Assembly: GCF_027587175.1 (NCBI RefSeq)
Contig: NZ_JAPCID010000046.1
Location: 1-64,000 of the forward strand
Source of the DNA: Solirubrobacter deserti
Lineage (GTDB): Bacteria > Actinomycetota > Thermoleophilia > Solirubrobacterales > Solirubrobacteraceae
DNA: 64,000 nucleotides
Direction of reading: 5' to 3'
The notes under the pieces were generated by a model, which was not told the origin of the DNA, ran no database searches, and worked only from the letters and a program-made list of their open reading frames with translations. Within the stretch, counting starts at the first letter, position 1; the number at the start of each line of letters is the position of its first letter. This document shows positions 3,230-24,515 of the stretch, one piece after another. The position numbers and the translations under genes are program-made.

Positions 3230-4696
3230 TCATCCAGAAGACCGCGCGCCGAACTCCTCGACGCCGATCACGGGCCGCAGGCCGCGTTCCAGCGCGCGAT
3301 CGGCGAACGCGTGGCGCAGGACGTCGCGCTCGAGCGCGTTGCCCAGCGCGGCCATGATCATCCCCTGGTCCAACGACAGGTACGAGTTCGAGACCACCCC
3401 GCTGTCGACGTTGACGGCGTCGCGGAAGCCCCACTTCGTGTACAGGCCCGGGAAGTCCCGCTGCAGCTTCGTCAGGTTGCGCAGCGTCGCCTCGGGCGCG
3501 TAGCGCAGGCCGAGGAAGGCGGCGTGCGGCGTGACGACGCCGTTGGTGTAGGCGGATTGCGGCGGGTCCGGGAGGGCCGGCCGGTCAGGGCAGCCCGGGA
3601 AGCCGCGGTCGATCAGCGTGCGGTCGTTGTTGGACGGGTTGCCGTTCGGGTCCATGCCGGTGCCGTCGACGCCGTAGACCGAGTAGCCGCCCTCAGGCAC
3701 GTTCGACGGCGAAAAGCCCCAGTAGCCGTAGCCGGCCTCCACGAGCCCGTGGTGGATCTGCGCGCGCACCGTCAGCGGGTGGTTGACGCCCCAGGAGCGC
3801 GGCGCCCACTGGGCCTCGGGCACGAACAGGTCAGGCATCAGCGCCTCGAACATCGATCCGCCCCACGACGGCGTCACGAGCGTCCCGGCGTACGGGTACG
3901 CACCCTCGAACACGTCCACGCCGTAGTACTTGCGCCACTTGCCGATCGGCTTGGTCTCCTGCCAGCTCCACTCGCAGGTGTCGGGGAACGTGCGCCACGT
4001 CCCGTAGTAGCTCTTGGCCGGCAGCTGACCGCGCACGATCCCGATGTACGTGGCGATGCGGCTCTCGCTGACCACGGTGTCGTAGCAGCACGGCGCCGCG
4101 CCGGTGTCCGGCTCGATGTGGAACAGGATCCGGTTGACGTCGGCCCGGTAGTAGACGCCGAAGTTCATCGACTCGTAGAGCGCGCCCGCACGCCGTGACA
4201 ACTGCGGGACGGCGTTCTGCACGATCCGCAGCCCGACGGCGAGCCAGCCGTTGTCGACCGAGGACAGGATCGGGTTCCGCGGCTCCCCGGAAGGCGGCCA
4301 GACCGTCAGCTTGGCCCCCGTCCGGTGGTCGTACCAGTTGTAGAACTGGCCGCCGGTCCCGCGCTCCATGACCTCGAGCGTCGAGAGCGTCCGGTCGAGC
4401 CGGCGCACGAGCTCGCGCTTGTGGATGAACCCGAGCCGCTCGGCGACGATCGCGCTCCACATGTAGGCGCCGATGTTGGTCGTGCTCGTCTGGACGCTGC
4501 GCGAGCCGTCGGCCTCCAGGATGTCGGCCGGCAGCCCGGACCGCTCGTCGGTCATCGCGACGAACGAGGACCACGTCGTGCGCGCGTACTCACGCAGTTG
4601 CCGATCACCACCCCCGTGGCGACCGTCCGCGGCGGCCTGGCCCGCCGGCACCAGCACGAAGGCCGCTACGAGCGCGACCACGAATTTGCTTCGCAT
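3230..4696 (-). CDS. Secreted DUF3131 / glucoamylase-like glycoside hydrolase
   Basis: 488 aa. It starts at ATG 4694-4696, preceded by GGGGGAG. A signal peptide (residues 1-23, A-G-Q-A-A-A) is followed by an alpha-helical (alpha/alpha)6-type domain. The phrases G-Q-F-Y-N-W-Y-D, S-S-V-D-N-G-W-L-A and Y-W-G-F-S-P-S-N-V-P-E-G-G-Y are characteristic of the putative glucoamylase / DUF3131 superfamily, related to GH144 and the glucoamylase-like domain of cyclic beta-glucan synthases. It likely acts on extracellular glucans or envelope polysaccharide, fitting the GH16 gene nearby. Substrate and catalytic residues cannot be fixed here. An in-frame extension to 5077 overlaps cysC and is rejected. Confidence 0.75.
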   Translation of the reverse strand: MRSKFVVALVAAFVLVPAGQAAADGRHGGGDRQLREYARTTWSSFVAMTDERSGLPADILEADGSRSVQTSTTNIGAYMWSAIVAERLGFIHKRELVRRLDRTLSTLEVMERGTGGQFYNWYDHRTGAKLTVWPPSGEPRNPILSSVDNGWLAVGLRIVQNAVPQLSRRAGALYESMNFGVYYRADVNRILFHIEPDTGAAPCCYDTVVSESRIATYIGIVRGQLPAKSYYGTWRTFPDTCEWSWQETKPIGKWRKYYGVDVFEGAYPYAGTLVTPSWGGSMFEALMPDLFVPEAQWAPRSWGVNHPLTVRAQIHHGLVEAGYGYWGFSPSNVPEGGYSVYGVDGTGMDPNGNPSNNDRTLIDRGFPGCPDRPALPDPPQSAYTNGVVTPHAAFLGLRYAPEATLRNLTKLQRDFPGLYTKWGFRDAVNVDSGVVSNSYLSLDQGMIMAALGNALERDVLRHAFADRALERGLRPVIGVEEFGARSSG

Positions 4697-4745
4697 GAGC
4701 TCCCCCTGAGAGTCGGACGAGGCCACATGTACCCCGATCCCGGGT

Positions 4746-8954: not shown

Positions 8955-8967
8955 TTCGCATGTAGGT

Positions 8968-8997
8968 GGGCGGCGATCCGTCACAGGATCGCCGCCC
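8968..8997 (+). terminator. Strong hairpin terminator after the M14 gene
   Basis: A perfect 12-bp stem (GGGCGGCGATCC paired with GGATCGCCGCCC) closes on a 6-nt loop 14 nt after the stop codon at 8954. No U-tract follows, as is usual for high-GC actinobacterial terminators. It separates the peptidase from the sigma-factor gene starting at 9017. Confidence 0.7.
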
Positions 8998-9016
8998 CCG
9001 CGCACTCTGGGGGTGG

Positions 9017-9586
9017 ATGCCGGACGACACGACACCCCTCGGCGCGCCGCTGACGACGCCCGACGGCTTCGTCGCCCTCTACCGCCGCGAGGCGGAGCTC
9101 GTCCTGCGCTTCTGCACCCGCCGGGTGCTCGACGCCGAGACCGGCGTGGACCTGTGCGCCGAGACGTTCGCCCAGGCGTTCCGCTCGCGGCGCTCGTTCC
9201 GCGGCGCGACGCAGGCCGAGGCGCGCGCGTGGTTGCTCACGATCGCCCGCCGCCAGGTCGCCCGCTACCTGAAGAGGGGCGCGTTGGACCGCCGTGCGCG
9301 CGAGGCGCTCGGGATCGTCACGCCCGTGCTGCAGGAGGGCGAGGCGGAGGAGATCGAGCGGCTCGCCGGGCTCGCGCCGCTGCGGGCGGCGCTGGCCGAG
9401 GAGCTGGCTCGGCTGGGCGGCGACCAGCGCGAGGCGCTGCGCCTGCGCGTGGTCGAGGAGCAGCCGTACCCCGAGGTGGCACGGTCGCTCGGCGTGACGG
9501 AGGCGACGGCACGAGCGCGGGTGTCACGCGGGCTGCGGACGCTCGCCGCGTCGTTGGAACTGCGATGGGAGGGCGAGCGCCCATGA
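9017..9586 (+). CDS. ECF-type RNA polymerase sigma factor
   Basis: 189 aa from ATG 9017. Region 2 is seen as F-V-A-L-Y-R-R-E-A-E-L-V-L-R-F-C-T-R-R followed by D-L-C-A-E-T-F-A-Q-A-F and A-W-L-L-T-I-A-R-R. Region 4 is L-R-V-V-E-E-Q-P-Y-P-E-V-A-R-S-L-G-V-T-E-A-T-A-R-A-R-V-S-R. The stop codon overlaps the next start (ATGA at 9583-9586), so it is translationally coupled to a single-TM protein that probably acts as its membrane-bound partner. The family directs transcription of stress or envelope genes; its target promoters are unknown. Confidence 0.9.
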   Translation: MPDDTTPLGAPLTTPDGFVALYRREAELVLRFCTRRVLDAETGVDLCAETFAQAFRSRRSFRGATQAEARAWLLTIARRQVARYLKRGALDRRAREALGIVTPVLQEGEAEEIERLAGLAPLRAALAEELARLGGDQREALRLRVVEEQPYPEVARSLGVTEATARARVSRGLRTLAASLELRWEGERP

Positions 9587-10860
9587 GGATCCTCGACGAG
9601 CTGGAACGCGAGATCGAGCGGGTGGCGCACGCGGCGGGAGAAGCGCGGCCGCGCCGCCGCTGGTGGCGTTCGGGCGCGCTGCTCGTGCTGGCGCCGCTGC
9701 TGGCCGGCACCGTCGCGGTGGCGGCGACGACCGGGATCCTGTCCGGCGAGCCGGTCTCCAGCGACCCGCACGCGCCGCGGGACCCGAACGCCGGGATCGG
9801 CGTCAACGCCGGTCCGGGCAAGCTGCTGGCGGTCCGCGCCGCCGATCCGGCCGGCGGCCCGGAGTGGGGCCTGCGACTGGTCAAGACCTCGCGCGGGCTG
9901 GGCTGCCTGCAGGTCGGCCGCGTCGTCGACGGTCGGCTCGGACGCCTCGGGCAGGACGGCGCGTTCGGCAACGACGGCAAGTTCCACGAGCTCGGCCCCG
10001 AGATCCTGGAGACCTCCAGCGAGTGCCAGCAGCCCGACGGCGCCGGGAACGTCTTCTTCGCGATGACGTCGATCGGGCAGCCGGCCAGCGCCGACCCCGC
10101 GAGCTGCGCCGTCCGCCCGCGCGGCGAGGACAAGCGCCCGGCGTGTCCGCGCGGCTCGCTGCGCGACGTCTTCTACGGCCTGCTCGGGCCGGAGGCGGCG
10201 GCGATCACCTACCGCGAGGGTGGGAAGACCGTGCGCCAGGCGGTCGAGCGCCCCGCCGGCGCCTACCTCGTCGTGCGCGCCACCGACCCGGACCGCCGCG
10301 ACGTCGGCTGGTGGTCCCCCAGCGTCACCCCGAGCTGGGTCGAGTCGATCGAGTTCCGCGACGGCACCGTCTGCCGCCCCGACGAGCGGCCGCGCCGCCA
10401 CGGCCGCCACGAGTGCCCGCTCAAGGGCTACGTGAAGCCGCGGCTCGACATCGCCACGCGCGCCGAGCTCGCCACCCCGATCACCGTCCGCGTGGGCACC
10501 GCGCGCGAGAAGCCCTACCCCGAGATGGACCGCAAGTCGCTGGAGCGCATGGAGTGGCAGCGTCGCGTCACGATCAGCTTCCGCGCCCGCCGCGCCGCAG
10601 ACGCCCGGTCCTTCTACAAGCTGACCGCCGAGATCCCGGGCCGTCCCCCGAACTGCGGCGTCGGCCTCGGCAGCCCGATCGCGCGCGACATCGCCGCCGG
10701 CGAGACGGTCACCGAGACCCTGTGGGTCGCGCACCGCTGCTCGGGCACGATGACGATCCGCATCGGCTACGAGCAGCAGACCGCTCCGTCCCAGATGCCG
10801 TTCCACGGCGACGGGCCGCCCAACGCGAAGGTCGGGACGGCCCGCGTGCGGATCCCCTAG
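9583..10860 (+). CDS. Membrane-anchored partner of the upstream ECF sigma factor
   Basis: 425 aa. A short cytosolic N-terminus (M-R-I-L-D-E-L-E-R-E-I-E-R-V-A) is followed by basic residues, one TM helix (about 30-50, G-A-L-L-V-L-A-P-L-L-A-G-T-V-A-V-A-A) and a large extracytoplasmic domain containing several Cys (C-L-Q-V-G, S-E-C-Q-Q, S-C-A-V-R, A-C-P-R-G). No zinc-type anti-sigma H-x3-C-x2-C motif is present. Coupling to the sigma gene and the topology suggest an anti-sigma or sensor role; that is inference from context. The gene is convergent with the giant operon and overlaps its last gene by 4 bp. Confidence 0.75.
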   Translation: MRILDELEREIERVAHAAGEARPRRRWWRSGALLVLAPLLAGTVAVAATTGILSGEPVSSDPHAPRDPNAGIGVNAGPGKLLAVRAADPAGGPEWGLRLVKTSRGLGCLQVGRVVDGRLGRLGQDGAFGNDGKFHELGPEILETSSECQQPDGAGNVFFAMTSIGQPASADPASCAVRPRGEDKRPACPRGSLRDVFYGLLGPEAAAITYREGGKTVRQAVERPAGAYLVVRATDPDRRDVGWWSPSVTPSWVESIEFRDGTVCRPDERPRRHGRHECPLKGYVKPRLDIATRAELATPITVRVGTAREKPYPEMDRKSLERMEWQRRVTISFRARRAADARSFYKLTAEIPGRPPNCGVGLGSPIARDIAAGETVTETLWVAHRCSGTMTIRIGYEQQTAPSQMPFHGDGPPNAKVGTARVRIP

Positions 10861-13800
10861 TTGCCGCCCGGGTTCTCGCCGATCAGGGTCGCGAAGCGCA
10901 GCAGGTACTCGTCGGAGGTGCCTCCGTCCGGGTCGGCGACGTGGTCGCTCTGAACCGCCACATCCGTGTCGGTCGGGCCTTCCCAGAACGGCGCGAGCCG
11001 CCCCAGCCCGCCCTGCGCGACGAGGTCGCCCACGAGGTCGACGCATGAGCGCGTTCCGCCCAAGCGCGACCAGTCCGCGTCCGTCGCCGGGGCGACCGGC
11101 GCCGTCACCCCGGTCAAGGACGCGAGCAGCGCCTGGCGGAAGGTGCGGATGCGGGCGCTCGCGCCGCCGCCGTCGGTCGTACGGTCGAAGCCGACGATGT
11201 CCACGCCGTCGTCGAACGTCATGCCGCGCCGGCGCCAGTGGGAGGTGCCGACCAGCGCCCACGCGTCGTCGACGACCACGGTCGTGGAGCGGATCGCGAC
11301 GGCGCGGCCCGGGAAGCCGTTTGGGTGGAACGCGACCACGCGCGCCGGGTCGACGTCTTTGAGCACCTGCAGCGCCGCGTTGCGGGCCTTGAACGCCTGC
11401 CGCACCCAGCCGCCGTAGAGCGGGTCGGCGTCGGGCCAGCGCGGGACGCACACGAGCACGAGCAGTGACTGCTGCTCGTTCATGCGCAGCGCGAGCTCGG
11501 CCACGAGGTCGAGCTCGTGTGGCGCGGCGGGCCCGGGCGGGTCCTTCTCGTGCTTGGTGGCCGAGAACGCGGGCGAGCTGATGAACACGAGGTCGCGCGC
11601 CTGGCGGACGGCGCGCCGCAGCGCCCACTGGGCGTCGCGCGAGCCGAAGCGCTGGGTGTGGAACTCGCGCCGGATCTCGCGGACGATCTGCGCCTCGTTG
11701 GTGAGGTCGACGTCGTCCACGTCGTCGGGGTCGAAGCCGAACTTCTGCACGATCACGTCGATCAGGTCGTTGATCGACGCGTCGGCGGCCGGGATGTCGT
11801 CGATCAGGGCGAGCTCGGGCGACTCGCACTTGACCGCGATCGTGCGCAGCACGGCGGCGGCACACGAGCGCGGCGCCGTCTGACCCGCGGGCGCGGTGTC
11901 GTTCGCGGGCTCGGCGGGCGCCGCCCAACCCGTGTTGGCCACCACGGGCAGCCAGCCGACGCCGGCGCTCGCCAGGAAGGGCAGCAAGGGCTGCGCGCGC
12001 CGCGCCGCGATCTGCGCGACGTCGAACGCCGCCGCCCCGTCCACGCGCACCCCGGCGGCGTGCACGTCCGGCCCGGCCGGGTTCCCGGGGTTGCCCAGCG
12101 CGTGCATCGCGCTGCGCGTCTCGCGCGCCCAGCGCCCGCCGCTGACGACGGCGTCCCAGGTCATCGGCGCGGCCGTGTCCCCCGTGCCGACCGTCAGCAG
12201 CGACGCAAAGCGAGCCTGGGTCGGCAGCCGCGGCCCTTCCCGCGGGTCGCTCTCGCCCCCGAGCCGGCGCAGCATCTCCAGGATCGACGTCGGCAGCGCC
12301 GGGTCCACCTCCGGCGCCGGGATGCCGAACACGGGCGCCGCCGCGACCGCCTTCAGCACCGCCCCGTTCCCCGCCATCGGGTCGGGCGTGCCGAAGGCGT
12401 CGACCGGCGTCGCGCCGCTCGGCGCCCCGATCGGCACGATCACGTTGCCGAACGTGCGCGTCGCGTTCATCCGGTCCGTCACGACGAGGTCGAAGATCAG
12501 CCGGCGGCCGGGCGGCTGCACGGCGCCGACGGGCAGGTCGAGCGGGTTCGTCAGCAGCAGCGAGAACGCGTTGTTGTCAGCCACGACGTGCGCGGCGCCG
12601 TCGCCGCGCAGGAAGCTCGGCGCCGGCCCGATCGACTCGATGCGCTTGAACACCTGGGGGTACACGCGCACGTGCCAGTCGAGCGGGATGGTCCCGCCCG
12701 GGAAGGTCAGCAGCACGTCCTGGTCGCCCGACCAGGACGCCACCAGCCCCGTGTCGGGCTGCCCGGACGGCGGCGCCCCGCCGCCCAGCGCCACCGGGAA
12801 CGCCGGCCAGTGCCCGCCCGGCAACCCGACGCCGTCGTCGATCACCGGCGAGGACGCGAACGCGAGCCCCTGCCAGCCCGCCCCGATCGCCCCCAGCACG
12901 CTGCCCGACGCGCTCAGCACGTCGACTCCGTCGACCAGGAAGTCGAGCCGCACGCGGTCACGCACCGCGGGCCGGAACTCCTCCGGGATCGCCTGGTCCG
13001 CGCCGTCGATCCCGTAGACGACCGTGTTGGAGCGGTTGCCCAGCAGGTGCCACTTGAGGTCGACCGCGGTCACGCGCAGGAACTGGCGCGCGATCCCCGC
13101 GGGCACGCCGGCGGGAACGGTCAGCGTCGTGCGGTCGAGCACGCCGTTGTGCGTCCACCCCACCCGGATCCGCGCGGCGCCGTCGCCGGAAGCCGGGATG
13201 CCGATGCCATCGGCCGCGTTGAGCGCGACGAGCCCGACCGCGTCGCCGGAGTCGGTGCCCGACACGAACTTGCGCGGCGCGAGCGAATCGACGGCCCGGA
13301 ACGGCGCGCCGTGCGGATCGACGACCTGCACGACGATCCCGGTCGCCTTCCCGGCGATGCTCGTGACGCCGCCCGGCGTGTTGAGCACGCCCAGCGGCGC
13401 GAGCGCGGGGAACGCCGTCGCCAGGTCGTTGAACAGCGCCGCGACCGCGACGGGGTCGACGATCAACCCGCGCGCGTCGTGGAAGCTCATCACCGGCGTG
13501 TCGGCCGGGTCGATGTCGATCGACTCGCCGGGCGCGAACCAGCGCGCGGTCAGCGCCGGGTTGGTGGCGCAGCGCACGACCATCGTGTGCGGCACCGGCC
13601 GGATCGGTCCGGCGGCGCCCAGCCGCGTCGCCACGAGCTGGTCCAGCCGCGTCGCCGCCTGCGGGTGCAGCCGCAGCACGGCGCCGATCCCGGTCAGCGG
13701 CAAGCCGCTCACGTCATAGACCCCCGCGCGCCGCAGGTCGGCGACCCACGTCCGGATGCCGAGGAACGGCGGGCGCGCGCCGCCGCCGGGCGTCATCGTG

Positions 13801-13949
13801 AGCGTCAGCGCGGCATTGTCGAACGTCGCGTCCGCGTTCGACCACGACGGCCCCAGCAGCGGCACCGTCAGGCCCAGCGCGAGCAGCCCGTCGTCCGTCA
13901 GCCGCTGCTGCGCGTCGTTGGGCGTGATCACGGGCGGCAGGGCGGTCAT
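10857..13949 (-). CDS. Giant operon protein C: 1030-aa protein with degenerate PLD-like C-terminal module
   Basis: It starts at ATG 13947-13949 with GGAGGT upstream and overlaps the stop of the preceding gene (ATGA), so it is translationally coupled. No signal peptide or TM segment is visible. Residues 1 to about 650 are beta-rich and unrecognised. The last third resembles the phospholipase D/PLDc_2 fold: A-R-D-L-V-F-I-S-S-P-A-F, then L-L-V-L-V-C-V-P-R-W-P-D, then T-T-V-V-V-D-D-A-W-A-L-V-G-T-S-H-W-R-R-R followed by D-D-G-V-D-I-V-G-F-D. The H-x-K of the HKD motif is replaced (R-S-T), so phosphodiesterase activity is doubtful. Function unknown; it probably works with the two genes upstream. Confidence 0.8.
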   Translation of the reverse strand: MTALPPVITPNDAQQRLTDDGLLALGLTVPLLGPSWSNADATFDNAALTLTMTPGGGARPPFLGIRTWVADLRRAGVYDVSGLPLTGIGAVLRLHPQAATRLDQLVATRLGAAGPIRPVPHTMVVRCATNPALTARWFAPGESIDIDPADTPVMSFHDARGLIVDPVAVAALFNDLATAFPALAPLGVLNTPGGVTSIAGKATGIVVQVVDPHGAPFRAVDSLAPRKFVSGTDSGDAVGLVALNAADGIGIPASGDGAARIRVGWTHNGVLDRTTLTVPAGVPAGIARQFLRVTAVDLKWHLLGNRSNTVVYGIDGADQAIPEEFRPAVRDRVRLDFLVDGVDVLSASGSVLGAIGAGWQGLAFASSPVIDDGVGLPGGHWPAFPVALGGGAPPSGQPDTGLVASWSGDQDVLLTFPGGTIPLDWHVRVYPQVFKRIESIGPAPSFLRGDGAAHVVADNNAFSLLLTNPLDLPVGAVQPPGRRLIFDLVVTDRMNATRTFGNVIVPIGAPSGATPVDAFGTPDPMAGNGAVLKAVAAAPVFGIPAPEVDPALPTSILEMLRRLGGESDPREGPRLPTQARFASLLTVGTGDTAAPMTWDAVVSGGRWARETRSAMHALGNPGNPAGPDVHAAGVRVDGAAAFDVAQIAARRAQPLLPFLASAGVGWLPVVANTGWAAPAEPANDTAPAGQTAPRSCAAAVLRTIAVKCESPELALIDDIPAADASINDLIDVIVQKFGFDPDDVDDVDLTNEAQIVREIRREFHTQRFGSRDAQWALRRAVRQARDLVFISSPAFSATKHEKDPPGPAAPHELDLVAELALRMNEQQSLLVLVCVPRWPDADPLYGGWVRQAFKARNAALQVLKDVDPARVVAFHPNGFPGRAVAIRSTTVVVDDAWALVGTSHWRRRGMTFDDGVDIVGFDRTTDGGGASARIRTFRQALLASLTGVTAPVAPATDADWSRLGGTRSCVDLVGDLVAQGGLGRLAPFWEGPTDTDVAVQSDHVADPDGGTSDEYLLRFATLIGENPGGN

Positions 13950-16900
13950 GACACCTCCACGTCGATCGTGTGGGAGCGCCCGTCCGGCGCCGTGAGCCGG
14001 AGCTTGAACGCCTTCACCGGCACGCGCGCGAGCACGGCGTAGGCGCGCTTGCGCCCACCCGCTCCGCGCCGCACCTGCAGCGGCTCGTTGCCCGGCGGCT
14101 GGCCCTGGTCGCGCGGGATGTCCGGCAGCGCGATCTCGAGCAGCAGCGTCTTGGCGAGCGGCGGGCCGAACGGCGGCTTGACCACGACCGCCGTCCCTCG
14201 GTCCCGCGACGGCACCAGCGCGCCCGGGCGCTCGACGACCGGGAACGGCTTGACCACCGCCGCGCTCTCGGGCGTCGCCTGCACGCGCAGCATGTACGCG
14301 AGCCCGTGGTAGCGCTCCAGCGGCGCGTCGCACGCGAACTGGAGCACGATCCCGCCCGGCGTCTTCGACAGCTGCGGCGACAGCAGCTCCGGCGCGGGCA
14401 GGACGGACCCCGCGGGCACGTGCAGCGTGCGCGTGCGCGACCGGCCGAGCGGGTCGATGACGCGCACGGAGACGTCGATCGCCGGGTCGTTCACGGCCCG
14501 TCGCACCAGCGCGCGGAACGACCCGCCGCCCACGCGGAAGAACCCGTTCTCGCTTGCCCCCGGCGGGTCGGTGGGCGCGCGCCCGAGCTCCCCGAAGTAC
14601 GAGAACAGCGGGTCGGCCGCGCCGACCGAGCGCACCACCACTTCCAGTTTGTGGGGCCCGAGCGCCGTCGGCGCGAGCGGTGCGGTGGTCGTCCAGTCCA
14701 GCTGCACGTCGGCGGCGGCGCTGCCCGGCCACGAGGTGGTGATCGCCGACAGGTTCGGGTCTCCGGCGGGCGGCGTCACCACCGACACCGGGTTCGACGG
14801 CGCCGAGCGCCCGCGGACCAGCCCGCGCTCGGCGATCTTGTACGGCAACGGCCCGCCCGTGTCGAACTCCTCGTCGGCCCACGCGACCGCCCGGTACCAG
14901 ACGCGCTTCCAGCTACCGCCGGGCACGTCGGTGCACGTGAACGTGTCGCCGTTGACGTTCCAGGCCGGGTTCAGCGGCGGGCCCATGGTGTCCAGCGAGC
15001 GCGCGGCGTCGTCGACCCGCACGCGGTAGAGGTCGACCTCCCCCACGCGGTGCCCGTCGCGCGCGGTGACCGTCAGCTTGACGCTGCCGTCGGCCTTCGC
15101 GAGCGCCTCGAGCATCGGCGGCGCGGGCGTCGCGATCCGCGGCGCGGCGCGCAGGATCACTGCTTCGCGCACGTCCGGCCCGGCCGGCCACGGCCCTTCC
15201 ACCCCGCCCGGCGAGAGGGAGACGACCGCGTAGGCGTGGATCGCCGTGGAACCGGCCGGGAGCGCGACATCCAGGCTCGTCCCGGTCAGCGGCTTCGTGT
15301 TCACGCGCGTGAACGGCCGCCGGTCCGGGCTGGCCTCCCACAGGTCCAGCAGCGCCGTCGCGCGGTCCGACAGCGTTGCCGACAGGTCCGGCTCGGGCGC
15401 GCCGTAGTGCGCGAGCATCGTCAGCTCGTCGGAGGTGTAGACGACGTAGCCCGCCGCGCCGTGGGCCACCGGCCAGGAGATCCGCGCGTGCGAGCGCCCC
15501 TCGGCGTCGGGCAGCGACGCGAGCGGGACGAGCTCCGGCGGCACGGGCGGCGCGACCGGGTCCGACGCGTACGCGATCACCGGCGCGCTCGCAGCGGCCG
15601 GATGTTCCGGCGCGATCAGCTCGGTGCCCGAGAGCCACAGCACGAGCCCGATGTGCGGGGTCGCGGTGAAGTTCGCCTGCAGGCCCTCGATCGTGAGCCG
15701 GTAGCGCCGCACGTCCTCGCCCTGCTCGCCCGGGTCGACGGCCTCGTCACCCTCCGGGTTCAGGTAGACGAGATCGCCCTCGCTCTGGACGGCCGCGTCC
15801 CCGCCGGAGAACGTCAGCGTGACCGCCTGGTCCCCGGCGGCGCCCCCGATCGCCCGCTGCAGGACCGCGGGTGCAACGGTGCTGGGCGGCGGCGCGGCCC
15901 GGTCGGCGGCCGCGTACATGCGGCCGACGAGCCGCAGCTCCTTCGGCCGGCGGTCCGTCCAGTCCCACGTGACGTCGACGGTCAGCTCGCCCGTGCACAG
16001 CTTGCCGCTGGCGGGCGCCGTGACCGCCAGCGTCGCAGCGACGATCCGCGGCGCGGGCGTGAGCGGCTGCTGGGCGTCGAACCCGACGCCCAGCCACGGG
16101 CTCCAGAGCGAGAAGATCGACTGGGTCGCCACGGAGTAGCGCACGTTGCGCTCGCCCGGGTTGTTCGGGATCATCAGCCGGCGGTCGGCGAGGTGGACGA
16201 AGTTGGACTGCGGGTCCTTCTCGGCCTGCCCGGGCGCGATCGGCTTGTGGCCGCCGCTCGGCCGCGGCTCCATCAGCGGCGCGGCCACGGCCGCCGCCGT
16301 GTCGTTGCGCGCCGCGGCGTAGCTCGCGACCCGGATCAGCGTGTTCGACGGCGGCCGGTTCCAGCGCACGATCGCGCTCGCCGCCCAGTCCGCGTCGCGC
16401 GCCGCCGGGGCGATGAACGCCGAGTGCTCGCTCGCGAGCTGCGCGGGCGGGAACGGCGGCAGCGCGGCGATCGGCCGCAGCGCGTAGGCCACGAGCTCGA
16501 CCGGCGCCGAGTTGCCGTCGAGGCCCTTCGCGTACGGCGCGGTGATCATCCAGTCCCAGCGCGAGCCGTCGTGGTAGGCCTTGCCCTCCGGCTGGGTGAT
16601 CTCGGGCAGGTTGGTGCCGTAGCCGAGCGCGAGGCTCAGGAACGGGTCGGCCGCCGTGGCCACCCGCAGCAGCATCAGCGGCGAGACCTTCGCCTTCGTC
16701 GGGTTGGCGTTCATCGCGTCGCCGTCCAGCGTCGCGGGCGGCGGCACCTCGACGTCCATCAGCGTCGCCGCCTGATCGCGTTGCGGGCGGGTCAGCACCG
16801 TCCGCAGCGCGGGCACGACGTCCTCGTTGACCTCGTCCACCAGCTTGGCCGGGACCGGCGGCTTCCACACCGGCGCCGCGACGCCGGCCATCACCTGCGC

Positions 16901-17602
16901 GTCCCACCCGAACCCGGGCGTGCCGCGGTCGATGCGGCTGATCGCGGCGTCGCGCGGGCTCATGAGCGGCGGCCCGACCGGCCCCTGCGGCGAGAAGTGC
17001 GTGCCGATCCCGCTCCAGGAGGTGTCGACCGGCATTCCGACGATCTCGACCGGCTGCCAGTTCGGCAGCGCCTCGTACTTGGCCACGGGGATGCCGGTCA
17101 CGCCCGTGACGCTCATCCCGCTCGGGATCAGCAGGCCGTTCATGTAGCCGCCGTGGATCTCGACCGACGTCGCGCCGCCGGGCGCGTGGCTCGTCGTGAC
17201 CAGCGAGTACAGCGACGGCGCGTTCGAGAGGCCGTGGATCGCTCCGCCGCTCGCGCTGTTGATGCTCAGCCGCGCCCACGCCACGGGCTGGTGGAAGAGC
17301 ACGAGCCGCCCGCTCAGCAGGAACGTCGCCGTCAGCGAGTAGCCGATCGGCACCTCGGCGCCGCCGGAGAACGACGGCCGCCGCCAGACCGTGAACGGTC
17401 CGGTCGGGAGGCCCACCCCGCGGTCCTTGCCGTCCGGCCCGAGGTTGCCGGCGGCGCCGTTGATGTGCCAGCGCAGGGCGACCACGCGCGGGAACCCGCG
17501 CGGCTTGACGTCGAGCTTGCGCCGGCGCGCCTCGACGTTCCAGTCGATCATGGCCGCCTCGACGATGAACAGCCGGGGATCGACGATCCGCGTGACGGCC
17601 AT
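13946..17602 (-). CDS. Giant operon protein B: 1218-aa beta-rich protein with FnIII-like modules
   Basis: ATG 17600-17602 is preceded by GGAGGAGG and lies one base after the stop codon of gene A. No signal peptide and no TM. The middle and C-terminal parts contain fibronectin-III-like strands: A-R-I-S-W-P-V-A-H-G-A-A-G-Y-V-V-Y, L-D-V-A-L-P-A-G-S-T-A-I-H-A-Y-A-V-V-S-L and R-V-W-Y-R-A-V-A-W-A-D-E. A Trp-rich segment (S-R-W-D-W-M-I-T-A-P-Y) lies in the N-terminal half. No enzyme motif was seen. It ends with a 4-bp overlap onto gene C. The architecture suggests an extended structural or binding protein. Confidence 0.8.
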   Translation of the reverse strand: MAVTRIVDPRLFIVEAAMIDWNVEARRRKLDVKPRGFPRVVALRWHINGAAGNLGPDGKDRGVGLPTGPFTVWRRPSFSGGAEVPIGYSLTATFLLSGRLVLFHQPVAWARLSINSASGGAIHGLSNAPSLYSLVTTSHAPGGATSVEIHGGYMNGLLIPSGMSVTGVTGIPVAKYEALPNWQPVEIVGMPVDTSWSGIGTHFSPQGPVGPPLMSPRDAAISRIDRGTPGFGWDAQVMAGVAAPVWKPPVPAKLVDEVNEDVVPALRTVLTRPQRDQAATLMDVEVPPPATLDGDAMNANPTKAKVSPLMLLRVATAADPFLSLALGYGTNLPEITQPEGKAYHDGSRWDWMITAPYAKGLDGNSAPVELVAYALRPIAALPPFPPAQLASEHSAFIAPAARDADWAASAIVRWNRPPSNTLIRVASYAAARNDTAAAVAAPLMEPRPSGGHKPIAPGQAEKDPQSNFVHLADRRLMIPNNPGERNVRYSVATQSIFSLWSPWLGVGFDAQQPLTPAPRIVAATLAVTAPASGKLCTGELTVDVTWDWTDRRPKELRLVGRMYAAADRAAPPPSTVAPAVLQRAIGGAAGDQAVTLTFSGGDAAVQSEGDLVYLNPEGDEAVDPGEQGEDVRRYRLTIEGLQANFTATPHIGLVLWLSGTELIAPEHPAAASAPVIAYASDPVAPPVPPELVPLASLPDAEGRSHARISWPVAHGAAGYVVYTSDELTMLAHYGAPEPDLSATLSDRATALLDLWEASPDRRPFTRVNTKPLTGTSLDVALPAGSTAIHAYAVVSLSPGGVEGPWPAGPDVREAVILRAAPRIATPAPPMLEALAKADGSVKLTVTARDGHRVGEVDLYRVRVDDAARSLDTMGPPLNPAWNVNGDTFTCTDVPGGSWKRVWYRAVAWADEEFDTGGPLPYKIAERGLVRGRSAPSNPVSVVTPPAGDPNLSAITTSWPGSAAADVQLDWTTTAPLAPTALGPHKLEVVVRSVGAADPLFSYFGELGRAPTDPPGASENGFFRVGGGSFRALVRRAVNDPAIDVSVRVIDPLGRSRTRTLHVPAGSVLPAPELLSPQLSKTPGGIVLQFACDAPLERYHGLAYMLRVQATPESAAVVKPFPVVERPGALVPSRDRGTAVVVKPPFGPPLAKTLLLEIALPDIPRDQGQPPGNEPLQVRRGAGGRKRAYAVLARVPVKAFKLRLTAPDGRSHTIDVEVS

Positions 17603-17603
17603 C

Positions 17604-20600
17604 TCAGTCCTCCTCCCACGGAGCCTTGGTGAACGCCACGTCGACGAGCTTGGGCAGATGGTCGCTCGCGCCGGGCCCGTCCAGGTAGCCCTCCTTGAAC
17701 GCGAGCCGTTTGAGCACGAGCGAGAGCGTCTTGCCGCGCGAGCCCGGCTTGAGCAGCACGATCGCGCGCTGCCCGCCGGGCGCGCGGACGATCCGCTGCA
17801 CCACGTCGTCGGAGCCCGAGCCCTCCTCCGGGAAGATCCAGTCGTCGCGCGTGAGCTCGTAGTGCTTGACGTCGGTGCCGGTGAGCGTCTCGAGCGTGGC
17901 GCGCTCGCGCTCGCGCCACAGGGGCTCGGTGGAATCGATCACGACCGCGGTCGGCTGCGGCGTGCCCGCGCCCTCCCACCACACGATCACGCGCGGCTTG
18001 TCCGGCACCGGCATCGGCTCCAGCCCTTGCCCGGCGAGCACCTGATCGAGCTCCTCACCCTCGGGCTGGTGGGACGTGAACGCGAGCTTGACCGCGTTCG
18101 CCAGCCCGTTCGGCACGGCGCGATGCGTCACGCGCGAGCCGCGCACGAACGCCGCCATCGCCTCCAGCGACGCGAAGCCGGAGGTCGCGAACGCGCGCCG
18201 GAACACCCGCTCCTCGGTCTTGCCGGTCGTGCCCTCGTCCGGGACGCGCCAGATGTCGAGCAGGTAGTCCGTCGCCGGGTCGAGCGGGATCGGGATCTTC
18301 GTCACCGAGTGGCGCTGACGGTCCTCGTCGACGTCCACGCAGTCCGGGTCGATCACGTCGAGCACGGTCGACTCCCAGGGCGAGAAGATGTCGCCCGGGA
18401 TCTGCTCGACGTTGGCGTTGACGCCCTCGGTGGCGAGCACGATCGGGTACGGGAACGGAAGCTCGTCCGGGTCCGGATGGCGTGCCGAGGCCGCCAGCAG
18501 CCGCAGCTCGAGCGTGTAGCCGTGCGCCTTGAACAGGTCGAACAGGTCGTGCGTGGCGAACGCGATCTGCAGCGGCTCGCCGCCGAACACGTGCCGCTCG
18601 CCCTCATAGGGCAGACACGCCAGCACCCACGGGTCCAGCCGCAGCGGCGCGTCCTCCTGGGTCCTGAACCAGAAGCTCTGCGTCGCGCCGTCGCTCGCGA
18701 TCTCCCCCGCGGCGTTGGACGCGTCCGCCGACCACGTCACGTCGACCCGGTAGGCCGTGCCCGGCGTCATCAGCGGCACGTCCGCGCTCTCGGCCCCGAG
18801 CGCGGCCTCCAGCACCTCGTGGTTCTTGGTGACCGTGTGCTCGTCGTGGTCCGAGCGCGCGATCTCGGCCTCGAGCAGGGCCTCGAGCGCGGCGACGTAG
18901 TAGATCGGGCCGCTCAGCGTCTCCTCCTGCTTGCCCTCCGGCGGCATGCCGACGACGATCCGGTCGGCCTTCAGCGCGCCGCCGACGTCCACCAGCACGG
19001 CGACGTACTGCTCGCTGTCGGGCAGGGCGAGCAGGTGGTTCATCACGAGCGTGACGTCGTCGTCCCACGGCCCGGCGGCGTCGACCCACGGGCTCGGGAG
19101 CGTCACCCAGCTCACGGCCATCGAAGCGTCCACCTGCTCGGCGAACACGATGTCGTCGTCGGGGGTGACGGCGCGCACCACGATCCGCTTGTTGAGCACG
19201 CGCTTGTGCACGAACAGCAGCAGCCGCGCGCGGTCGAACACGCCCGGCTCGAGGATGACGGCGTCGGCGAGGTCACCGGGCTTGAACTTCAGTGCGTCCC
19301 AGCGCTTCTGGATGTCCTGCTCGCGCGCCGGATCGCCGGTCGGCGGCTTGAGCGTGTCGAAGCGCGGCGCGGCGAGGATGCGGCTCGGGCACGTGCGCGC
19401 GGGCGCCTGGGCTTCGGCCACGACGCCGCGCAGCGCCGCGTTGCTCATCGGCACGCCGAGCTTGAGCCGGCGCTGGATGTCGGTGATCGAGAGCCCGCGC
19501 TCGTCGAGCACGTCGGGGGTCTTGAGGCCCTTCACGCGTTCGGTGCCGGGGCGGGCGAGCGCCGGCTTGCCGGGCTCGGGCTGCGGGCAGGCGACGATCG
19601 CGCCGACGACCTCCGCGGGCAGGATGCCGCGGAACGGGTCGACCATCGGGTCGCCGCAGCGCCAGCGCTCCTCCACGTCCAGCCGGGTCGGCGTCGGCAG
19701 CGACCGTACGGTCTCCGGCGGGTCCGGCCACGCCTCACCGAACACGATCCAGCCGTCCTCGGACGGGCCGAGCGGCTCGTAGCGGAACGTCCACAGCACG
19801 GGCGTCGGTGGCGCGGCCTGGTAACACACGGTGCCCCAGCGGTCCTTGACCGTCTCGGTCAGCTGCTCGGACGCCTGCAGCGCCTTCGGCGTCGGGTTCG
19901 GCACCCACGACAGCAGCGCGAGCTGCGCCGCCTCGTTGGCCTCGGTCGGCGGGCGCAGCGTCCACCACGTGGCCGGGCCGCCCGGCTTGGACAGCGGGCC
20001 GGCGATGTCGACCGCGGTCAGCGTGTAGGAGAGCTTGTCCGAGCTGCGCTGGATCTCGCGACCGCCGCCCGAGCCGCCGAGCGCGTCACCGCGGAACTTG
20101 AGGTCGTTCTTCTCGAACGGCGGCGCGGTGAACTCGATGACCGGGATGGCGTTGATCGGAACGACCGGGATCTTCGGGTCGTCCTGGGTCGCCGTGGCCT
20201 TGCCCAGGCCCCCGTCGACGGGCTCGTCGGAAGCCGTGCCGTGCACCAGCGCAGGCGTGCGGCTGACGAGGGTCACGCCGCCCACCAGGGCCGGGATCGC
20301 GATGTCCGGCGGCTGGTCCTCCTCGAGCGTGAAGTCGACGCAGCCCTCGATCTCGAAGAAGAACAGGTCGATCGACCCGCACACCTCGCCGTGGATGCGG
20401 TAACCGGTGGAGTCCGGGTCGTCGGGCAGCTCGCCCAGCCGCACGTTCAGCTCGGCGCTGGCCGAGATCGAGACGATGAACAGGCGCAGCTCGCCGCGGC
20501 CGTAGAGGATGCCGGCCACCAGCAGGGGCGAGAAGCCGAGGATGGCGTCGAAGCCCGCGGCCAGCTCGGCGTACAGGCCGACCGACTTCGAGCCCCAGAC

Positions 20601-23600
20601 CATCGAGACGTGCAGGCCGGCGGAGATCGCGAACCCGTGCGGCACGGGCAGCTCGGGCATGAAGTCGTCCGCGCTGTTCTTCCCGTCCCCGACGAGCATG
20701 AGGTAGCCCGAGCCCTTGAAGACCTCGAAGATCTCGGCGCGGATCGGGTCCGGGTACTGGCCGAGGTACAGGTGCCAGTTCTGCGGCTCCTTGCCGTCGA
20801 AGAACGCCTCGACCGGGATCCGCAGCTTCAGGATCGGGTCGATCGTGTAGTCGATGACCAGCCCGATCGTGAGCGTCTCACGCCCGACGTCGAGGTCGAC
20901 GACGGCGAGCAGCGTGCCCTCCGCCTCGGTCTCGAGCTCGGGCATCGGCACGAGCAGGTTCGCCTTCATCATCAACAGCAGGCGCGGTCCCGGCAGCTCC
21001 AGCAGGACCATGCCCTTCATGTTGAAGACGATCGAGCTGCCCATCGTGCCGACGAGCGCGCCGACGCCGAACGCCCAGCGGTCGATCTGCGGCTTCCACA
21101 GCGCCGGGTCCTCGACCTTGGTGATGTCACCGCCCGCGCGCTTGAGCCAGGACAGCGCCTTCGTGGTCGAACCGGCGTCGGGCTCCTCGTTGCGCGCGAA
21201 GTGCATCGCAAACAGGCCGATGAAGCCGTAGATGCCCAGCCCGGAGGACCACAGCGGGATCGCGACCGGGAAGTTGACCTCGATGCCCACGGCGACGCCC
21301 GTGGCCGGGCCGCCCTGGTCCTCGGGGATGTTGCGGATCGCGAGCGACGCGGCGATGCGCAGGCTGAGCGGGACGAGCGTGATGTCGATGCGGCCCGCGA
21401 AGCCCGTCTCGTCGAAGGCGAGGTAGCCCGAGCCGGCCAGCACGCCCGGAATGTCGACGCCGACGCCGAGTGCGGTGAGCTCGACGCCGAACGGGTCGCC
21501 GAGCGTGATCCGCACCCCGGCGCGCTCGAGCGCGACCACGCCGAGGTCCACGGCCGAGGCGAGGTTGACCTCGAGGTAGGTCGGGTTGGTGCGCGAGATC
21601 TTCGCGCCGTCCACGCGCAGCACCTGGCCGAGCGGGTCGGCGACGGTCAGCGAGCCGGGCTTGGAGACGTCGAGCGTGTAGCCCTTGGAGGAGTCGAAGA
21701 CCGGGTGGAAGATCGGCTCGCCCGTCGGGCCGGCGCCGAAGCGCACCCCGATCGCCTTGTAGCGGGCGACGAGCGGCTTGTCGCGCGCGATCGTCAGCAG
21801 CCGCAGCGGGCCGATCTTGATGTCCGCGCTGACCGCGGTCTCGATGTCGGCGAGGATCGCCGTCGACCACGCGCCCGCGTGCTGGCGCACGACCAGCTCG
21901 CCGCCGTACCAGACGACGCGCTCGACGGTGAACCAGTCGGTCGCGGTCAGCAGCGCGGGCAGCCCCGCCGCCGCGGCGCCGAGGACCAGGTCGGTGACTT
22001 CCGCGCTGCCGGGCTTCTCCGGCGCGAGCTCCGCCAGCAGCGGCCAGAACAGCAGGTACAGGCCGAGCAGGTTGCGCGCGGTGGACGGCTCCGCGAGCGG
22101 CTGGCCGGGCAACGAGCCGGTGGCCGCGAGCCCGTCCACGTCGGACGGATCGGCGCCGAAGAGCACGCTCAGCTGCCACTCGTCGCTGCCCGGGTTCTGC
22201 GTGTACACGCCGCGGAAGGCGACGATGCCGTCGCCCGGGTTCTGGTGGCCGAGGCCCTGGAACTCCGGCCCCTCCCCCGCCTGCACGCCGCTTTCACGCA
22301 GCGTGCGCTCGGCCGCGGTGTCGACGTCGATCTCGCCGTGCAGCTCGACCGCCACGAAGTCGTCGCGGACGATCCGCACCTTTGCGCCGATCGAGCGCAG
22401 GAAGTCGGGCGGCTCCGGCGGGTCGTCGGTCGGCGGCGGGTCGGGCAGGTCGATCGTGATCTCTTCGTTGATGACCGGCGGGCGCTTGACGACGGCGGTC
22501 GTGACCGGGCCGGCGAACGCGATCGGCGTCAGCAGCTCGGCGCGCCACCAGCGCCGGCGCGGGTTGTTGGCCGGGTCGCCGATCTGCGCGGGCTTGGCCT
22601 GGGTGAACCCGCGCGGGTCGGTCTCGATGATCAGGCGCCCGGCGCCAGCGAGCTGGTCGTAGAGCCGGCGCGCGACCTTGGCCCGGCGCTCGGACAGCGC
22701 CTGGTTGTAGCCGGCCTTGGCGTCGTCGCCCTCCCAGGAGGCGTGGCCGACGACGGTGATCTCGTCCTGCGCCGCGAGCGAGCGCAGCGCGTCGCCGTAC
22801 TCGGAGGACGCGAGCACCGACATGCCGCCGGGCGTCCAGCCGCTGTCGATCGTCTGGTCCAGCGACTCGGTCGTGTGCGTGAGATCGGCGTTGTTGGCGT
22901 ACTCGTTGAGCTGGGCGTCGGTGAGCTGGTCCGGCTCGTCGTAGTGGAAGTAGACGGGCGCCTTGGTCGTCGTGCCGGGCACCGTGGCCTCGACCGTCTG
23001 CTGGCTGTCGGGCGCGAGCGGGAACGTGGCGGAGGTGGCCGGGCCGCCGGGGACGGTCACGCCGCCGACCTCCCAGGTGGCGGCCGAGTTGTCCTCGAGC
23101 GCGACCGTGACCGTCGTGTCGGTCTGGCTGCGGATGACGAGCCGCGGGTTGGTGACCGTCGCGCCGCCGCGCATGGTCGTCGACGACTCGACGTGCGCGG
23201 ACGGGATCGCGCCCGGGATGGTGATGGTGCCCGAGCTGCCGCCGGGCGCGTTGCGCTGCGCGTCGATCGTGAGGATGACCGGCTCGTCGCCCTGCGCGGT
23301 GACCTCGACCTCGATCTTGATCTCGTCGGTCTGGCCCCAAGCGTCGATCGTCTTGATCCGCTCGGTCTCCCACGCGCCGCCGTCGATGCGGATCCTGGAG
23401 AGGTACGGCGGCCTGCGGCCCTCGATGTCGACCACCATCGTGGACTCGTCGGGCAGCACCACGGACAGGTGCAGGTCGTCGATGCGGCGGACGTTGATCG
23501 GCTCGCCGAACAACGTGTAGAAGCGCGCGCCCAGGTGCAGCTCGCCGCCCTGGTTGACGACGTCGAGCATGAAGTCGCCGGTCACGCCGGGCGTGTTGCC

Positions 23601-24515
23601 GATGCCGATCAGCAGGTTCGTCGCGCCCGCGCTGACCGCCCAGCCCTCCGCGCCCTGCGGCGAGACGAACAGGCGGATCTCCGGGAAGTAGACGCCGGTC
23701 CAGTCCTGGTCGTAGCCGAACTGCTCGAGCACGGCCGGCGGCGTCGAGCCCTGCGAGAGGTCGAGCACGGCCGAGCGGAAGCCGAAGCCGACCACGCGGC
23801 CCGTGCCGATGAACGCGTACGGCGGGTCCATCGTGACCATCTGCGCGACGCCGATGTCCCCGGGGTCGTCCAGCCCGGAAGCGCCGAACGACAGCAGCTG
23901 GATGGTCGGCTGCGAGCCGAGCGCGGAGCCCTGCGTGATCCGCAGCTTGACCTTCGGCAGCGTCAGTTTGACCTCGGTGGCCGTGTCGTGCGGCTCGAGC
24001 ACCTGGTCGGTCGGGCGCAGCTGGGCGGGCTTGAGGAACGGCGGGCGCAGCACCGCGGACGTGATCACCAGGTCGAGCACGAACTCGGTGCTCGGGTAGT
24101 CCGAGACCGCACCGATCGGCGGCGGGTCGAACGCGTCGAGCACCGCGTCGACCGGCGTGCCGTTGAGCGGCCCTGCGCCCTGCACGATGATCGCCGAGCT
24201 CGCCCGGGGCGCGAGCAGCTGGAAGTCGATCGTCGTGTCGCGCAGGTCGATCCACGGCTGCCGGCGCGACGGGTCGTCCTGCGGGTGGCCCTCCGTGTTC
24301 TCGGCGCGGACGCCGAAGCTGAACGTCATCGGGTCGAAGTAGACGTCGACGTCGGCGTGGATGCGGGCGCGGCCGCGGAGCACGCTCGCCGACGGGTCAG
24401 CGCCCTCCTCGTACTCGTCCACGGCGAGCGTGGCGAGCGCGGCGTGGAAGTTCCCCGCGGCGTTGCCGAGCAGGAAGTACGGGCTGACGAGGTCCCACAG
24501 CGCTACGTCCGGCAT
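17604..24515 (-). CDS. Giant operon protein A: 2303-aa protein with OmpA-like module and DUF6603-like core
   Basis: It starts at ATG 24513-24515 and is the first gene of a three-gene leftward operon. No signal peptide or lipobox. Residues 1-540 are beta-rich with phrases such as D-W-T-G-V-Y-F-P-E-I-R-L-F-V. Residues about 545-660 resemble an OmpA/MotB peptidoglycan-binding domain (E-I-T-V-V-G-H-A-S around His591, then Y-N-Q-A-L-S-E-R-R-A-K-V-A). The usual Asp after G-H-T is Ser593 and the H-to-N loop is three residues longer. Residues about 900-1400 contain D-I-P-G-V-L-A-G-S-G-Y-L and G-L-G-I-Y-G-F-I-G-L-F-A-M, which recall DUF6603-type giant proteins (from memory, unverified). The C-terminal 900 aa are unrecognised. 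Confidence 0.82.
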   Translation of the reverse strand: MPDVALWDLVSPYFLLGNAAGNFHAALATLAVDEYEEGADPSASVLRGRARIHADVDVYFDPMTFSFGVRAENTEGHPQDDPSRRQPWIDLRDTTIDFQLLAPRASSAIIVQGAGPLNGTPVDAVLDAFDPPPIGAVSDYPSTEFVLDLVITSAVLRPPFLKPAQLRPTDQVLEPHDTATEVKLTLPKVKLRITQGSALGSQPTIQLLSFGASGLDDPGDIGVAQMVTMDPPYAFIGTGRVVGFGFRSAVLDLSQGSTPPAVLEQFGYDQDWTGVYFPEIRLFVSPQGAEGWAVSAGATNLLIGIGNTPGVTGDFMLDVVNQGGELHLGARFYTLFGEPINVRRIDDLHLSVVLPDESTMVVDIEGRRPPYLSRIRIDGGAWETERIKTIDAWGQTDEIKIEVEVTAQGDEPVILTIDAQRNAPGGSSGTITIPGAIPSAHVESSTTMRGGATVTNPRLVIRSQTDTTVTVALEDNSAATWEVGGVTVPGGPATSATFPLAPDSQQTVEATVPGTTTKAPVYFHYDEPDQLTDAQLNEYANNADLTHTTESLDQTIDSGWTPGGMSVLASSEYGDALRSLAAQDEITVVGHASWEGDDAKAGYNQALSERRAKVARRLYDQLAGAGRLIIETDPRGFTQAKPAQIGDPANNPRRRWWRAELLTPIAFAGPVTTAVVKRPPVINEEITIDLPDPPPTDDPPEPPDFLRSIGAKVRIVRDDFVAVELHGEIDVDTAAERTLRESGVQAGEGPEFQGLGHQNPGDGIVAFRGVYTQNPGSDEWQLSVLFGADPSDVDGLAATGSLPGQPLAEPSTARNLLGLYLLFWPLLAELAPEKPGSAEVTDLVLGAAAAGLPALLTATDWFTVERVVWYGGELVVRQHAGAWSTAILADIETAVSADIKIGPLRLLTIARDKPLVARYKAIGVRFGAGPTGEPIFHPVFDSSKGYTLDVSKPGSLTVADPLGQVLRVDGAKISRTNPTYLEVNLASAVDLGVVALERAGVRITLGDPFGVELTALGVGVDIPGVLAGSGYLAFDETGFAGRIDITLVPLSLRIAASLAIRNIPEDQGGPATGVAVGIEVNFPVAIPLWSSGLGIYGFIGLFAMHFARNEEPDAGSTTKALSWLKRAGGDITKVEDPALWKPQIDRWAFGVGALVGTMGSSIVFNMKGMVLLELPGPRLLLMMKANLLVPMPELETEAEGTLLAVVDLDVGRETLTIGLVIDYTIDPILKLRIPVEAFFDGKEPQNWHLYLGQYPDPIRAEIFEVFKGSGYLMLVGDGKNSADDFMPELPVPHGFAISAGLHVSMVWGSKSVGLYAELAAGFDAILGFSPLLVAGILYGRGELRLFIVSISASAELNVRLGELPDDPDSTGYRIHGEVCGSIDLFFFEIEGCVDFTLEEDQPPDIAIPALVGGVTLVSRTPALVHGTASDEPVDGGLGKATATQDDPKIPVVPINAIPVIEFTAPPFEKNDLKFRGDALGGSGGGREIQRSSDKLSYTLTAVDIAGPLSKPGGPATWWTLRPPTEANEAAQLALLSWVPNPTPKALQASEQLTETVKDRWGTVCYQAAPPTPVLWTFRYEPLGPSEDGWIVFGEAWPDPPETVRSLPTPTRLDVEERWRCGDPMVDPFRGILPAEVVGAIVACPQPEPGKPALARPGTERVKGLKTPDVLDERGLSITDIQRRLKLGVPMSNAALRGVVAEAQAPARTCPSRILAAPRFDTLKPPTGDPAREQDIQKRWDALKFKPGDLADAVILEPGVFDRARLLLFVHKRVLNKRIVVRAVTPDDDIVFAEQVDASMAVSWVTLPSPWVDAAGPWDDDVTLVMNHLLALPDSEQYVAVLVDVGGALKADRIVVGMPPEGKQEETLSGPIYYVAALEALLEAEIARSDHDEHTVTKNHEVLEAALGAESADVPLMTPGTAYRVDVTWSADASNAAGEIASDGATQSFWFRTQEDAPLRLDPWVLACLPYEGERHVFGGEPLQIAFATHDLFDLFKAHGYTLELRLLAASARHPDPDELPFPYPIVLATEGVNANVEQIPGDIFSPWESTVLDVIDPDCVDVDEDRQRHSVTKIPIPLDPATDYLLDIWRVPDEGTTGKTEERVFRRAFATSGFASLEAMAAFVRGSRVTHRAVPNGLANAVKLAFTSHQPEGEELDQVLAGQGLEPMPVPDKPRVIVWWEGAGTPQPTAVVIDSTEPLWRERERATLETLTGTDVKHYELTRDDWIFPEEGSGSDDVVQRIVRAPGGQRAIVLLKPGSRGKTLSLVLKRLAFKEGYLDGPGASDHLPKLVDVAFTKAPWEED

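What the first reader, a model, noticed from the sequence alone, without database searches (positions are those of the whole stretch)
10857..24515. Three-gene, 13.7-kb coupled operon of giant proteins with no known function
Three leftward genes (2303, 1218 and 1030 aa) are joined by a 1-bp gap and a 4-bp overlap, with strong ribosome-binding sites at the second and third starts, so they are made together in fixed order. None has a signal peptide, TM helix or classical enzyme motif. Visible pieces are an OmpA-like module and a DUF6603-like core in A, FnIII-like strands in B and a degenerate PLD-like end in C. Size, beta-rich make-up and stoichiometric coupling suggest a large assembly: a structural, injection or contact-type apparatus, or cargo of one. 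It is the best candidate in the window for an undescribed system.
Basis: partly seen in the sequence, partly recalled or inferred. Interest (0 to 1): 0.85.

Follow-up and report, generated by a model that had tools for sequence, protein, structure and literature searches.

The report
Mobile operon of three giant proteins
A rare, tightly coupled set of two or three giant genes of unknown function recurs, in the same order, in unrelated soil bacteria; it appears to make a complex whose largest protein carries a long lipid- or membrane-type beta sheet and whose third protein is a phospholipase D that has lost its catalytic residues.

Summary
In detail: three leftward genes (2303, 1218 and 1030 aa), a 1-nt gap, a 4-nt overlap, strong Shine-Dalgarno sites, no signal peptide or TM segment. 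It is not a one-off. The same A-B pair, with or without C, occurs in about 20 genomes across Actinomycetota, Acidobacteriota, Alpha- and Betaproteobacteria and Myxococcota. Measured A-B junctions are 2 nt or less in 19 of 20 loci, trees mix phyla, and several copies are on plasmids. It is very rare: only the window's own genome among 396 Actinomycetota. No secretion or contractile-tail gene travels with it, and no other neighbour is conserved. A's core is a remote DUF6603 relative predicted as an uninterrupted amphipathic beta meander, best matched by apolipoprotein B's beta belt and outer-membrane barrels. C ends in a PLD fold whose catalytic H and K are replaced in 10 of 10 homologues, though a Mycetohabitans version keeps them. 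Best reading: an accessory, horizontally spread complex that binds lipid or inserts in membranes, A and B the obligate core, C an optional PLD-derived part. Function is inferred, not shown. Canonical DUF6603 genes, one in this genome, also sit in giant-gene operons with different partners. No paper in the held library names DUF6603.

The parts
17604..24515 (-). Gene A, 2303 aa, giant DUF6603-superfamily protein; no signal peptide
20316..21533 (-). Amphipathic beta-meander core of A (residues about 995-1400), predicted as uninterrupted antiparallel strands
   Evidence: model pLDDT mostly 80-90 in this stretch; fold matches; hydrophobicity alternation lag-2 z=6.7
20256..21908 (-). DUF6603-like region of A (residues 870-1420) used as profile A9
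   Evidence: hhalign to the own-genome DUF6603 protein, probability 96%; PF20248 in 6 of 19 homologues
22653..22796 (-). OmpA-C-like motif of A (residues 574-621), degenerate (GHAS where the canonical motif has GHTD)
   Evidence: Pfam OmpA E=0.0023, below the curated cut-off; 4 of 19 homologues
13946..17602 (-). Gene B, 1218 aa, family without any Pfam/NCBIfam/PHROG model; always next to A
17609..17614 (-). Shine-Dalgarno AGGAGG of B, inside the end of A
10857..13949 (-). Gene C, 1030 aa, C-terminal PLD-like fold; optional member
13953..13958 (-). Shine-Dalgarno GGAGGT of C, inside the end of B
11082..11648 (-). PLD-like region of C (residues 768-956)
   Evidence: hhalign to the HKD-bearing PLD of the Mycetohabitans operon, probability 95.6%; BLASTP to a Pfam-positive PLD of Nonomuraea
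11265..11294 (-). Position of the second HKD motif of C: IRSTTVVVDD, with H->R and K->T, D kept

Best explanation
A-B(-C) is a self-contained, horizontally transferred accessory operon that makes a large protein complex which engages lipid. A supplies a very long amphipathic beta sheet (a belt like that of apolipoprotein B, or a barrel) that binds lipid or inserts in a membrane. B is a beta-type partner that is always co-translated with A and probably completes or chaperones it. C is an optional subunit that uses a phospholipase-D fold as a non-catalytic binding module; an ancestral or sister form (Mycetohabitans) keeps the HKD residues. Shown here: gene coupling, conservation of the linked set across phyla, rarity and transfer, absence of an export signal, homology of C to PLD with loss of H and K, remote DUF6603 homology of A. 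Predicted only: the beta-meander fold. Inferred: complex formation, lipid contact, the role of each part, and the benefit to the host.
For: A-B-C collinear in the window, Acidobacteriales, Streptosporangiales, Ferrovum, Acidobacteria SZAS-4, Paracraurococcus, Rhizobium tropici (two strains), Planotetraspora and Polymorphobacter; A-B in the rest. A-B junction -4 to +2 nt in 19 of 20 loci. Trees of A, B and C mix phyla; starred branches force at least 6 changes for Alphaproteobacteria on the A tree. Plasmid copies in R. tropici, P. aminophilus, Azospirillum and Mycetohabitans. pAMI4 of P. aminophilus, which carries A-B, could be removed from its host (PMC3925955), so there it is dispensable. Core fold: ApoB-100 belt Z 14.4 over 327 residues, then OprD-type porins Z 13-14; Foldseek top hits are barrels, ushers, LptD and ApoB. 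Strong alternation of hydrophobicity in the A core (lag-2 z 6.7, against 2.9 for all of B and about -1 to -2 for C). C is PLD-derived with HKD lost in 10 of 10 while the Mycetohabitans operon keeps HKD.
Against: The model of the A core is moderate (mean pLDDT 69, pTM 0.43), rmsd to ApoB is 15 A and Foldseek TM-scores are low, so the match shows a type of sheet, not a relative. Long beta meanders also occur in proteins that bind no lipid. No lipid-metabolism gene is a conserved neighbour. The model of C is poor (pLDDT 46) and B was not folded. No expression or biochemical data.
Confidence: 0.35

Rival explanations
1. A pore-forming or delivery-type weapon: A(-B) is the carrier or pore and the third gene is a variable payload, released by lysis or an unknown route.
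For: Rare, patchy, plasmid-borne and dispensable; the third position varies (dead PLD, HKD-bearing PLD in Mycetohabitans, an unrelated 786-aa protein in Azospirillum, or nothing). Some canonical DUF6603 operons begin with an enzyme or Hcp gene: M64 peptidase, weak PhoD-like phosphatase, weak metallo-beta-lactamase, Hcp-like.
Against: C is catalytically dead in most loci and is long and conserved, unlike a payload; no immunity gene, secretion gene or known toxin domain; many loci have no third gene; Hcp adjacency seen once only.
Confidence: 0.2
2. A soluble intracellular scaffold or compartment that does not touch lipid: B as a chain of beta-sandwich domains, A and C as further structural units.
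For: No signal peptides or TM helices; weak FnIII match for B; proline- and glycine-rich proteins.
Against: Specific alternating hydrophobicity of the A core and barrel/belt-type fold matches; origin of C from PLD.
Confidence: 0.25
3. Part of a contractile injection or type VI-like apparatus.
Against: Sheath absent from 15 of 22 carriers and never adjacent; no conserved neighbour at all; the own-genome Hcp looks secreted and is unlinked.
Confidence: 0.04
4. An ordinary outer-membrane beta-barrel with accessory proteins (the Paracoccus copy is annotated 'outer membrane protein').
For: Porin, usher and LptD fold matches; annotation.
Against: No signal peptide and presence in Cellulomonas, Demequina, Solirubrobacter and other Actinomycetota that, from general knowledge, lack an outer membrane.
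Confidence: 0.06

Closest known systems
DUF6603 family (Pfam PF20248), function unknown
   Same: A core is a remote homologue (hhalign 96%); 6 of 19 A homologues match the Pfam model; canonical members also head operons of giant genes
   Different: The window protein itself is not recognised by the Pfam model; the second-gene partners of canonical DUF6603 genes show no detectable similarity to B or C
Phospholipase D superfamily (PLDc_2, PF13091)
   Same: C-terminal 190 residues of C align over the second HKD half, with D, the G of the GS motif and the RRG..FD region kept
   Different: H and K of HKD replaced in 10 of 10 homologues; about 760 extra N-terminal residues of unknown fold
Apolipoprotein B beta belt / outer-membrane beta barrels (fold only)
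   Same: Very long amphipathic antiparallel meander
   Different: No sequence similarity; no signal peptide; open or closed sheet not determined
Tc (ABC) toxin complexes (analogy of three giant genes only)
   Same: Three adjacent giant genes of roughly similar sizes (from general knowledge)
   Different: No Tc or RHS domain found in any of the three; A's core is predicted as a different fold type

Membership tests
DUF6603 (PF20248) | Pfam model match above 27 bits | tested here: not met
   window A not matched at E<=1; own-genome search with PF20248 finds only another gene, G000:C86
DUF6603 superfamily (remote) | profile similarity over the core and family members that match the model | tested here: met
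   hhalign 96%, 380 columns; 6 of 19 homologues hit PF20248, best 2e-11
Phospholipase D enzymes | HxKxxxxD catalytic motif | tested here: not met
   IRSTTVVVDD in the window; H and K absent in 10 of 10
Phospholipase D fold | profile similarity to bona fide PLD | tested here: met
   hhalign 95.6% to P0004, which has HKD and PF13091/PF00614
OmpA-C peptidoglycan binding | Pfam PF00691 above cut-off and conserved Asp/Arg | tested here: not met
   E 0.0023, below cut-off; GHAS instead of GHTD in the window (the role of the Asp is from general knowledge)
Fibronectin type III (gene B) | FN3 profile or structure match | tested here: inconclusive
   PDB profile hit to Ihog FnIII E 0.039; no Pfam FN3 in 18 members; B not folded
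Contractile injection systems | linked sheath, tube or baseplate genes | tested here: not met
   sheath absent from 15 of 22 carriers and never adjacent; no shared neighbours
Tc toxin complex | TcA/TcB/TcC or RHS domains | tested here: not met
   no such Pfam, NCBIfam or PHROG match in A, B or C
Known anti-phage defence systems | PADLOC model match | tested here: not met
   A, B and C without hits; only the Mycetohabitans PLD weakly resembles DrmC, also a PLD
Lipid-belt lipoproteins (ApoB type) | amphipathic belt that carries lipid | tested here: inconclusive
   fold match Z 14.4 tied with porins; lipid binding not testable here

The most novel reading that the evidence does not exclude
A mobile bacterial lipid-carrying or membrane-attacking machine: a giant DUF6603-type amphipathic belt (A) with an obligate partner (B), plus a PLD recycled as a non-catalytic lipid sensor (C); and a wider, undescribed class of 'DUF6603 giant operons' with swappable partners, of which this genome carries two kinds.
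Probability: 0.25. Interest if true: 0.85.

Novelty: categorically new. Interest (0 to 1): 0.62.

Why it matters
If the linked set is a real complex, it is an undescribed class of mobile giant-protein system that crosses phylum borders, and it gives a first genetic context for DUF6603, a family for which no paper was found in the held library. It also offers a testable claim: that a phospholipase D was kept without its catalytic residues as part of a lipid-facing assembly. A plasmid-cured strain has already been made for one carrier.

Tried and rejected
Viral origin: no relative of A in IMG/VR or in phage records. Contractile apparatus. Hcp linkage: adjacent in one relative's canonical DUF6603 operon only; the own-genome Hcp looks secreted and is unlinked. 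B or C homologous to gene 2 of canonical DUF6603 operons, or B to gene 3: no similarity found (gene 3 was compared as a single sequence only, so weakly tested). Solved-structure sequence searches with A, B and C profiles: nothing significant. Structure of C: too poor to search. Viral structure library: only porin-like or weak matches. Literature: no paper with DUF6603 or PF20248; the R. tropici and giant-operon text searches gave nothing useful. First genome-contig query with five divergent sequences failed for lack of conserved stretches.

Full report
Observation. A ends one base before B begins, and C begins inside the stop of B (ATGA); both downstream genes have near-perfect Shine-Dalgarno sequences inside the preceding gene. 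A has no clear ribosome-binding site, but its start is supported by alignment with relatives. None has a signal peptide or TM-like stretch. At 73% GC long ORFs are cheap (a 2409-aa ORF lies antisense to A), so the proof that these are genes is homology.

Distribution. tblastn of plasmids found all three genes, in order, on the R. tropici CIAT 899 megaplasmid. One scan of 84,980 species genomes with the A core gave 18 loci including the own genome. BLASTP, ORF maps and alignments of these and of four plasmid loci show four arrangements: A-B-C (window, two Acidobacteriota, Streptosporangiales, Ferrovum, Paracraurococcus, R. tropici, Planotetraspora, Polymorphobacter); A-B with no third gene (Cellulomonas, Paracoccus, Sphingomonas, Roseococcus, Demequina, two further Acidobacteriota; the Anaeromyxobacter contig ends within or just after B); A-B plus an unrelated 786-aa protein (Azospirillum); and, reordered, a 1322-aa putative B-like protein, an HKD-bearing PLD and A in Mycetohabitans. 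The assignment of the Mycetohabitans 1322-aa protein to B rests on position and short motifs only. A-B spacing is -4 to +2 nt in 19 of 20 loci and 19 nt in one. The set is rare: 1 of 396 Actinomycetota (the own genome) for A and the same for B, and 2 of 289 Alphaproteobacteria, one of them the genome used as centre. One copy per genome (a second very weak match in one). Trees of A, B and C mix phyla, which, with plasmid carriage, points to horizontal transfer. pAMI4 of P. aminophilus, which carries A-B, was readily removed from its host (PMC3925955), so the pair is dispensable there.

Neighbours. All-against-all comparison of up to 20 kb on each side in 16 genomes plus plasmid loci found no gene family that follows the operon; the recurring hits are large superfamilies such as ABC transporters, dehydrogenases and regulators. 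Sheath genes are absent from 15 of 22 carriers and not adjacent in the others. The window's own neighbours are ordinary: a sigma-70-family factor, M14 peptidase, sulfotransferase and glycoamylase-type protein on one side; a penicillin-binding protein and a spore-photoproduct-lyase family protein on the other.

A. The Pfam DUF6603 model misses the window protein but matches 6 of 19 homologues, and profile comparison with the canonical DUF6603 protein in the same genome gives 96% probability. AlphaFold2 with 18 homologues gives a moderate model of residues 660-1640; in residues 995-1400, where pLDDT is mostly 80-90, it is an uninterrupted antiparallel meander. Column hydrophobicity alternates strongly there (lag-1 z -5.3, lag-2 z 6.7) and not in C. 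VIA-align ranks the apolipoprotein B belt first (Z 14.4) and a crowd of porins next (Z 12-14); these rows are effectively tied, rmsd is large, and the match shows a sheet type, not kinship. An OmpA-like motif at 574-621 is probably real but degenerate.

B. No Pfam match in any of 18 homologues; a weak FnIII hit in the PDB. Its N-terminal L-R ... G-x-P-x-x-P-[FL] motif is shared across the types, more loosely in Azospirillum.

C. The last third is homologous to PLD, but the catalytic H and K are R/K/D/A and T/S in all 10 homologues, while D and the RRG..FD segment are invariant. The N-terminal 760 residues are of unknown fold; the model is poor.

Wider context. Canonical DUF6603 genes occur in 9 of 296 Actinomycetota genomes. 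In the seven neighbourhoods read beyond the gene, it is followed by further long genes; gene calls there were made by a GC-frame heuristic. The own genome has such a gene at a contig end. Those partners are unlike B and C as far as tested and have no Pfam matches. Several such operons start with a different enzyme or Hcp-like gene. So DUF6603-type sheets recurrently travel with giant partners, and the window operon is one divergent branch.

Mechanism. I favour a lipid- or membrane-engaging complex (0.35). Shown: coupling, conservation, transfer, PLD origin and loss of the catalytic residues in C, absence of signal peptides. Predicted: the amphipathic sheet. Inferred: complex formation, lipid contact, and the advantage to the host. 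A weapon with a variable third part (0.2) and a soluble scaffold (0.25) are the main rivals. The contractile or injection reading is not supported for this operon.

Novelty. I mark it 'categorically new' in the sense that no described system with these parts was found, not because a new mechanism has been shown; one domain family (DUF6603) and one fold (PLD) are known.

Noticed in passing
L013:3-4951 (own genome, contig C86): The same genome carries a second, canonical DUF6603 gene followed by another long gene that is cut by the contig end; its partner is unlike B or C.
   Followed up: partly
L077, L079, L080, L081, L082, L083, L084: Canonical DUF6603 genes in other Actinomycetota head operons of giant genes; upstream genes vary (M64 peptidase, weak PhoD-like phosphatase, weak metallo-beta-lactamase, WD40, Hcp-like).
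   Followed up: partly
L079:13912-14517 and G041:C25:16785-17174: Two Hcp-like genes next to a canonical DUF6603 operon in a relative of the same order.
   Followed up: partly
L090:1876-3061 (G179:C187): A frameshifted relic of a C gene, 81% identical to the Planotetraspora C over 201 residues, in a genome of the same class where no A core was found: apparently a decayed copy.
   Followed up: partly
L009:13678-21168: The Mycetohabitans A homologue has a concanavalin-like/3-keto-disaccharide-hydrolase-like stretch near its C-terminus (subthreshold), suggesting a sugar-binding insert.
   Followed up: no
window 3230-4702 and L038:1334-3628: A glycoamylase/DUF3131 protein lies near the operon in both the window genome and the Streptosporangiales genome, on different sides; probably coincidence.
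   Followed up: no
window 8966-10860: Sigma-70-family factor gene followed by an uncharacterised reading frame whose end overlaps the end of C, convergent with the operon.
   Followed up: no
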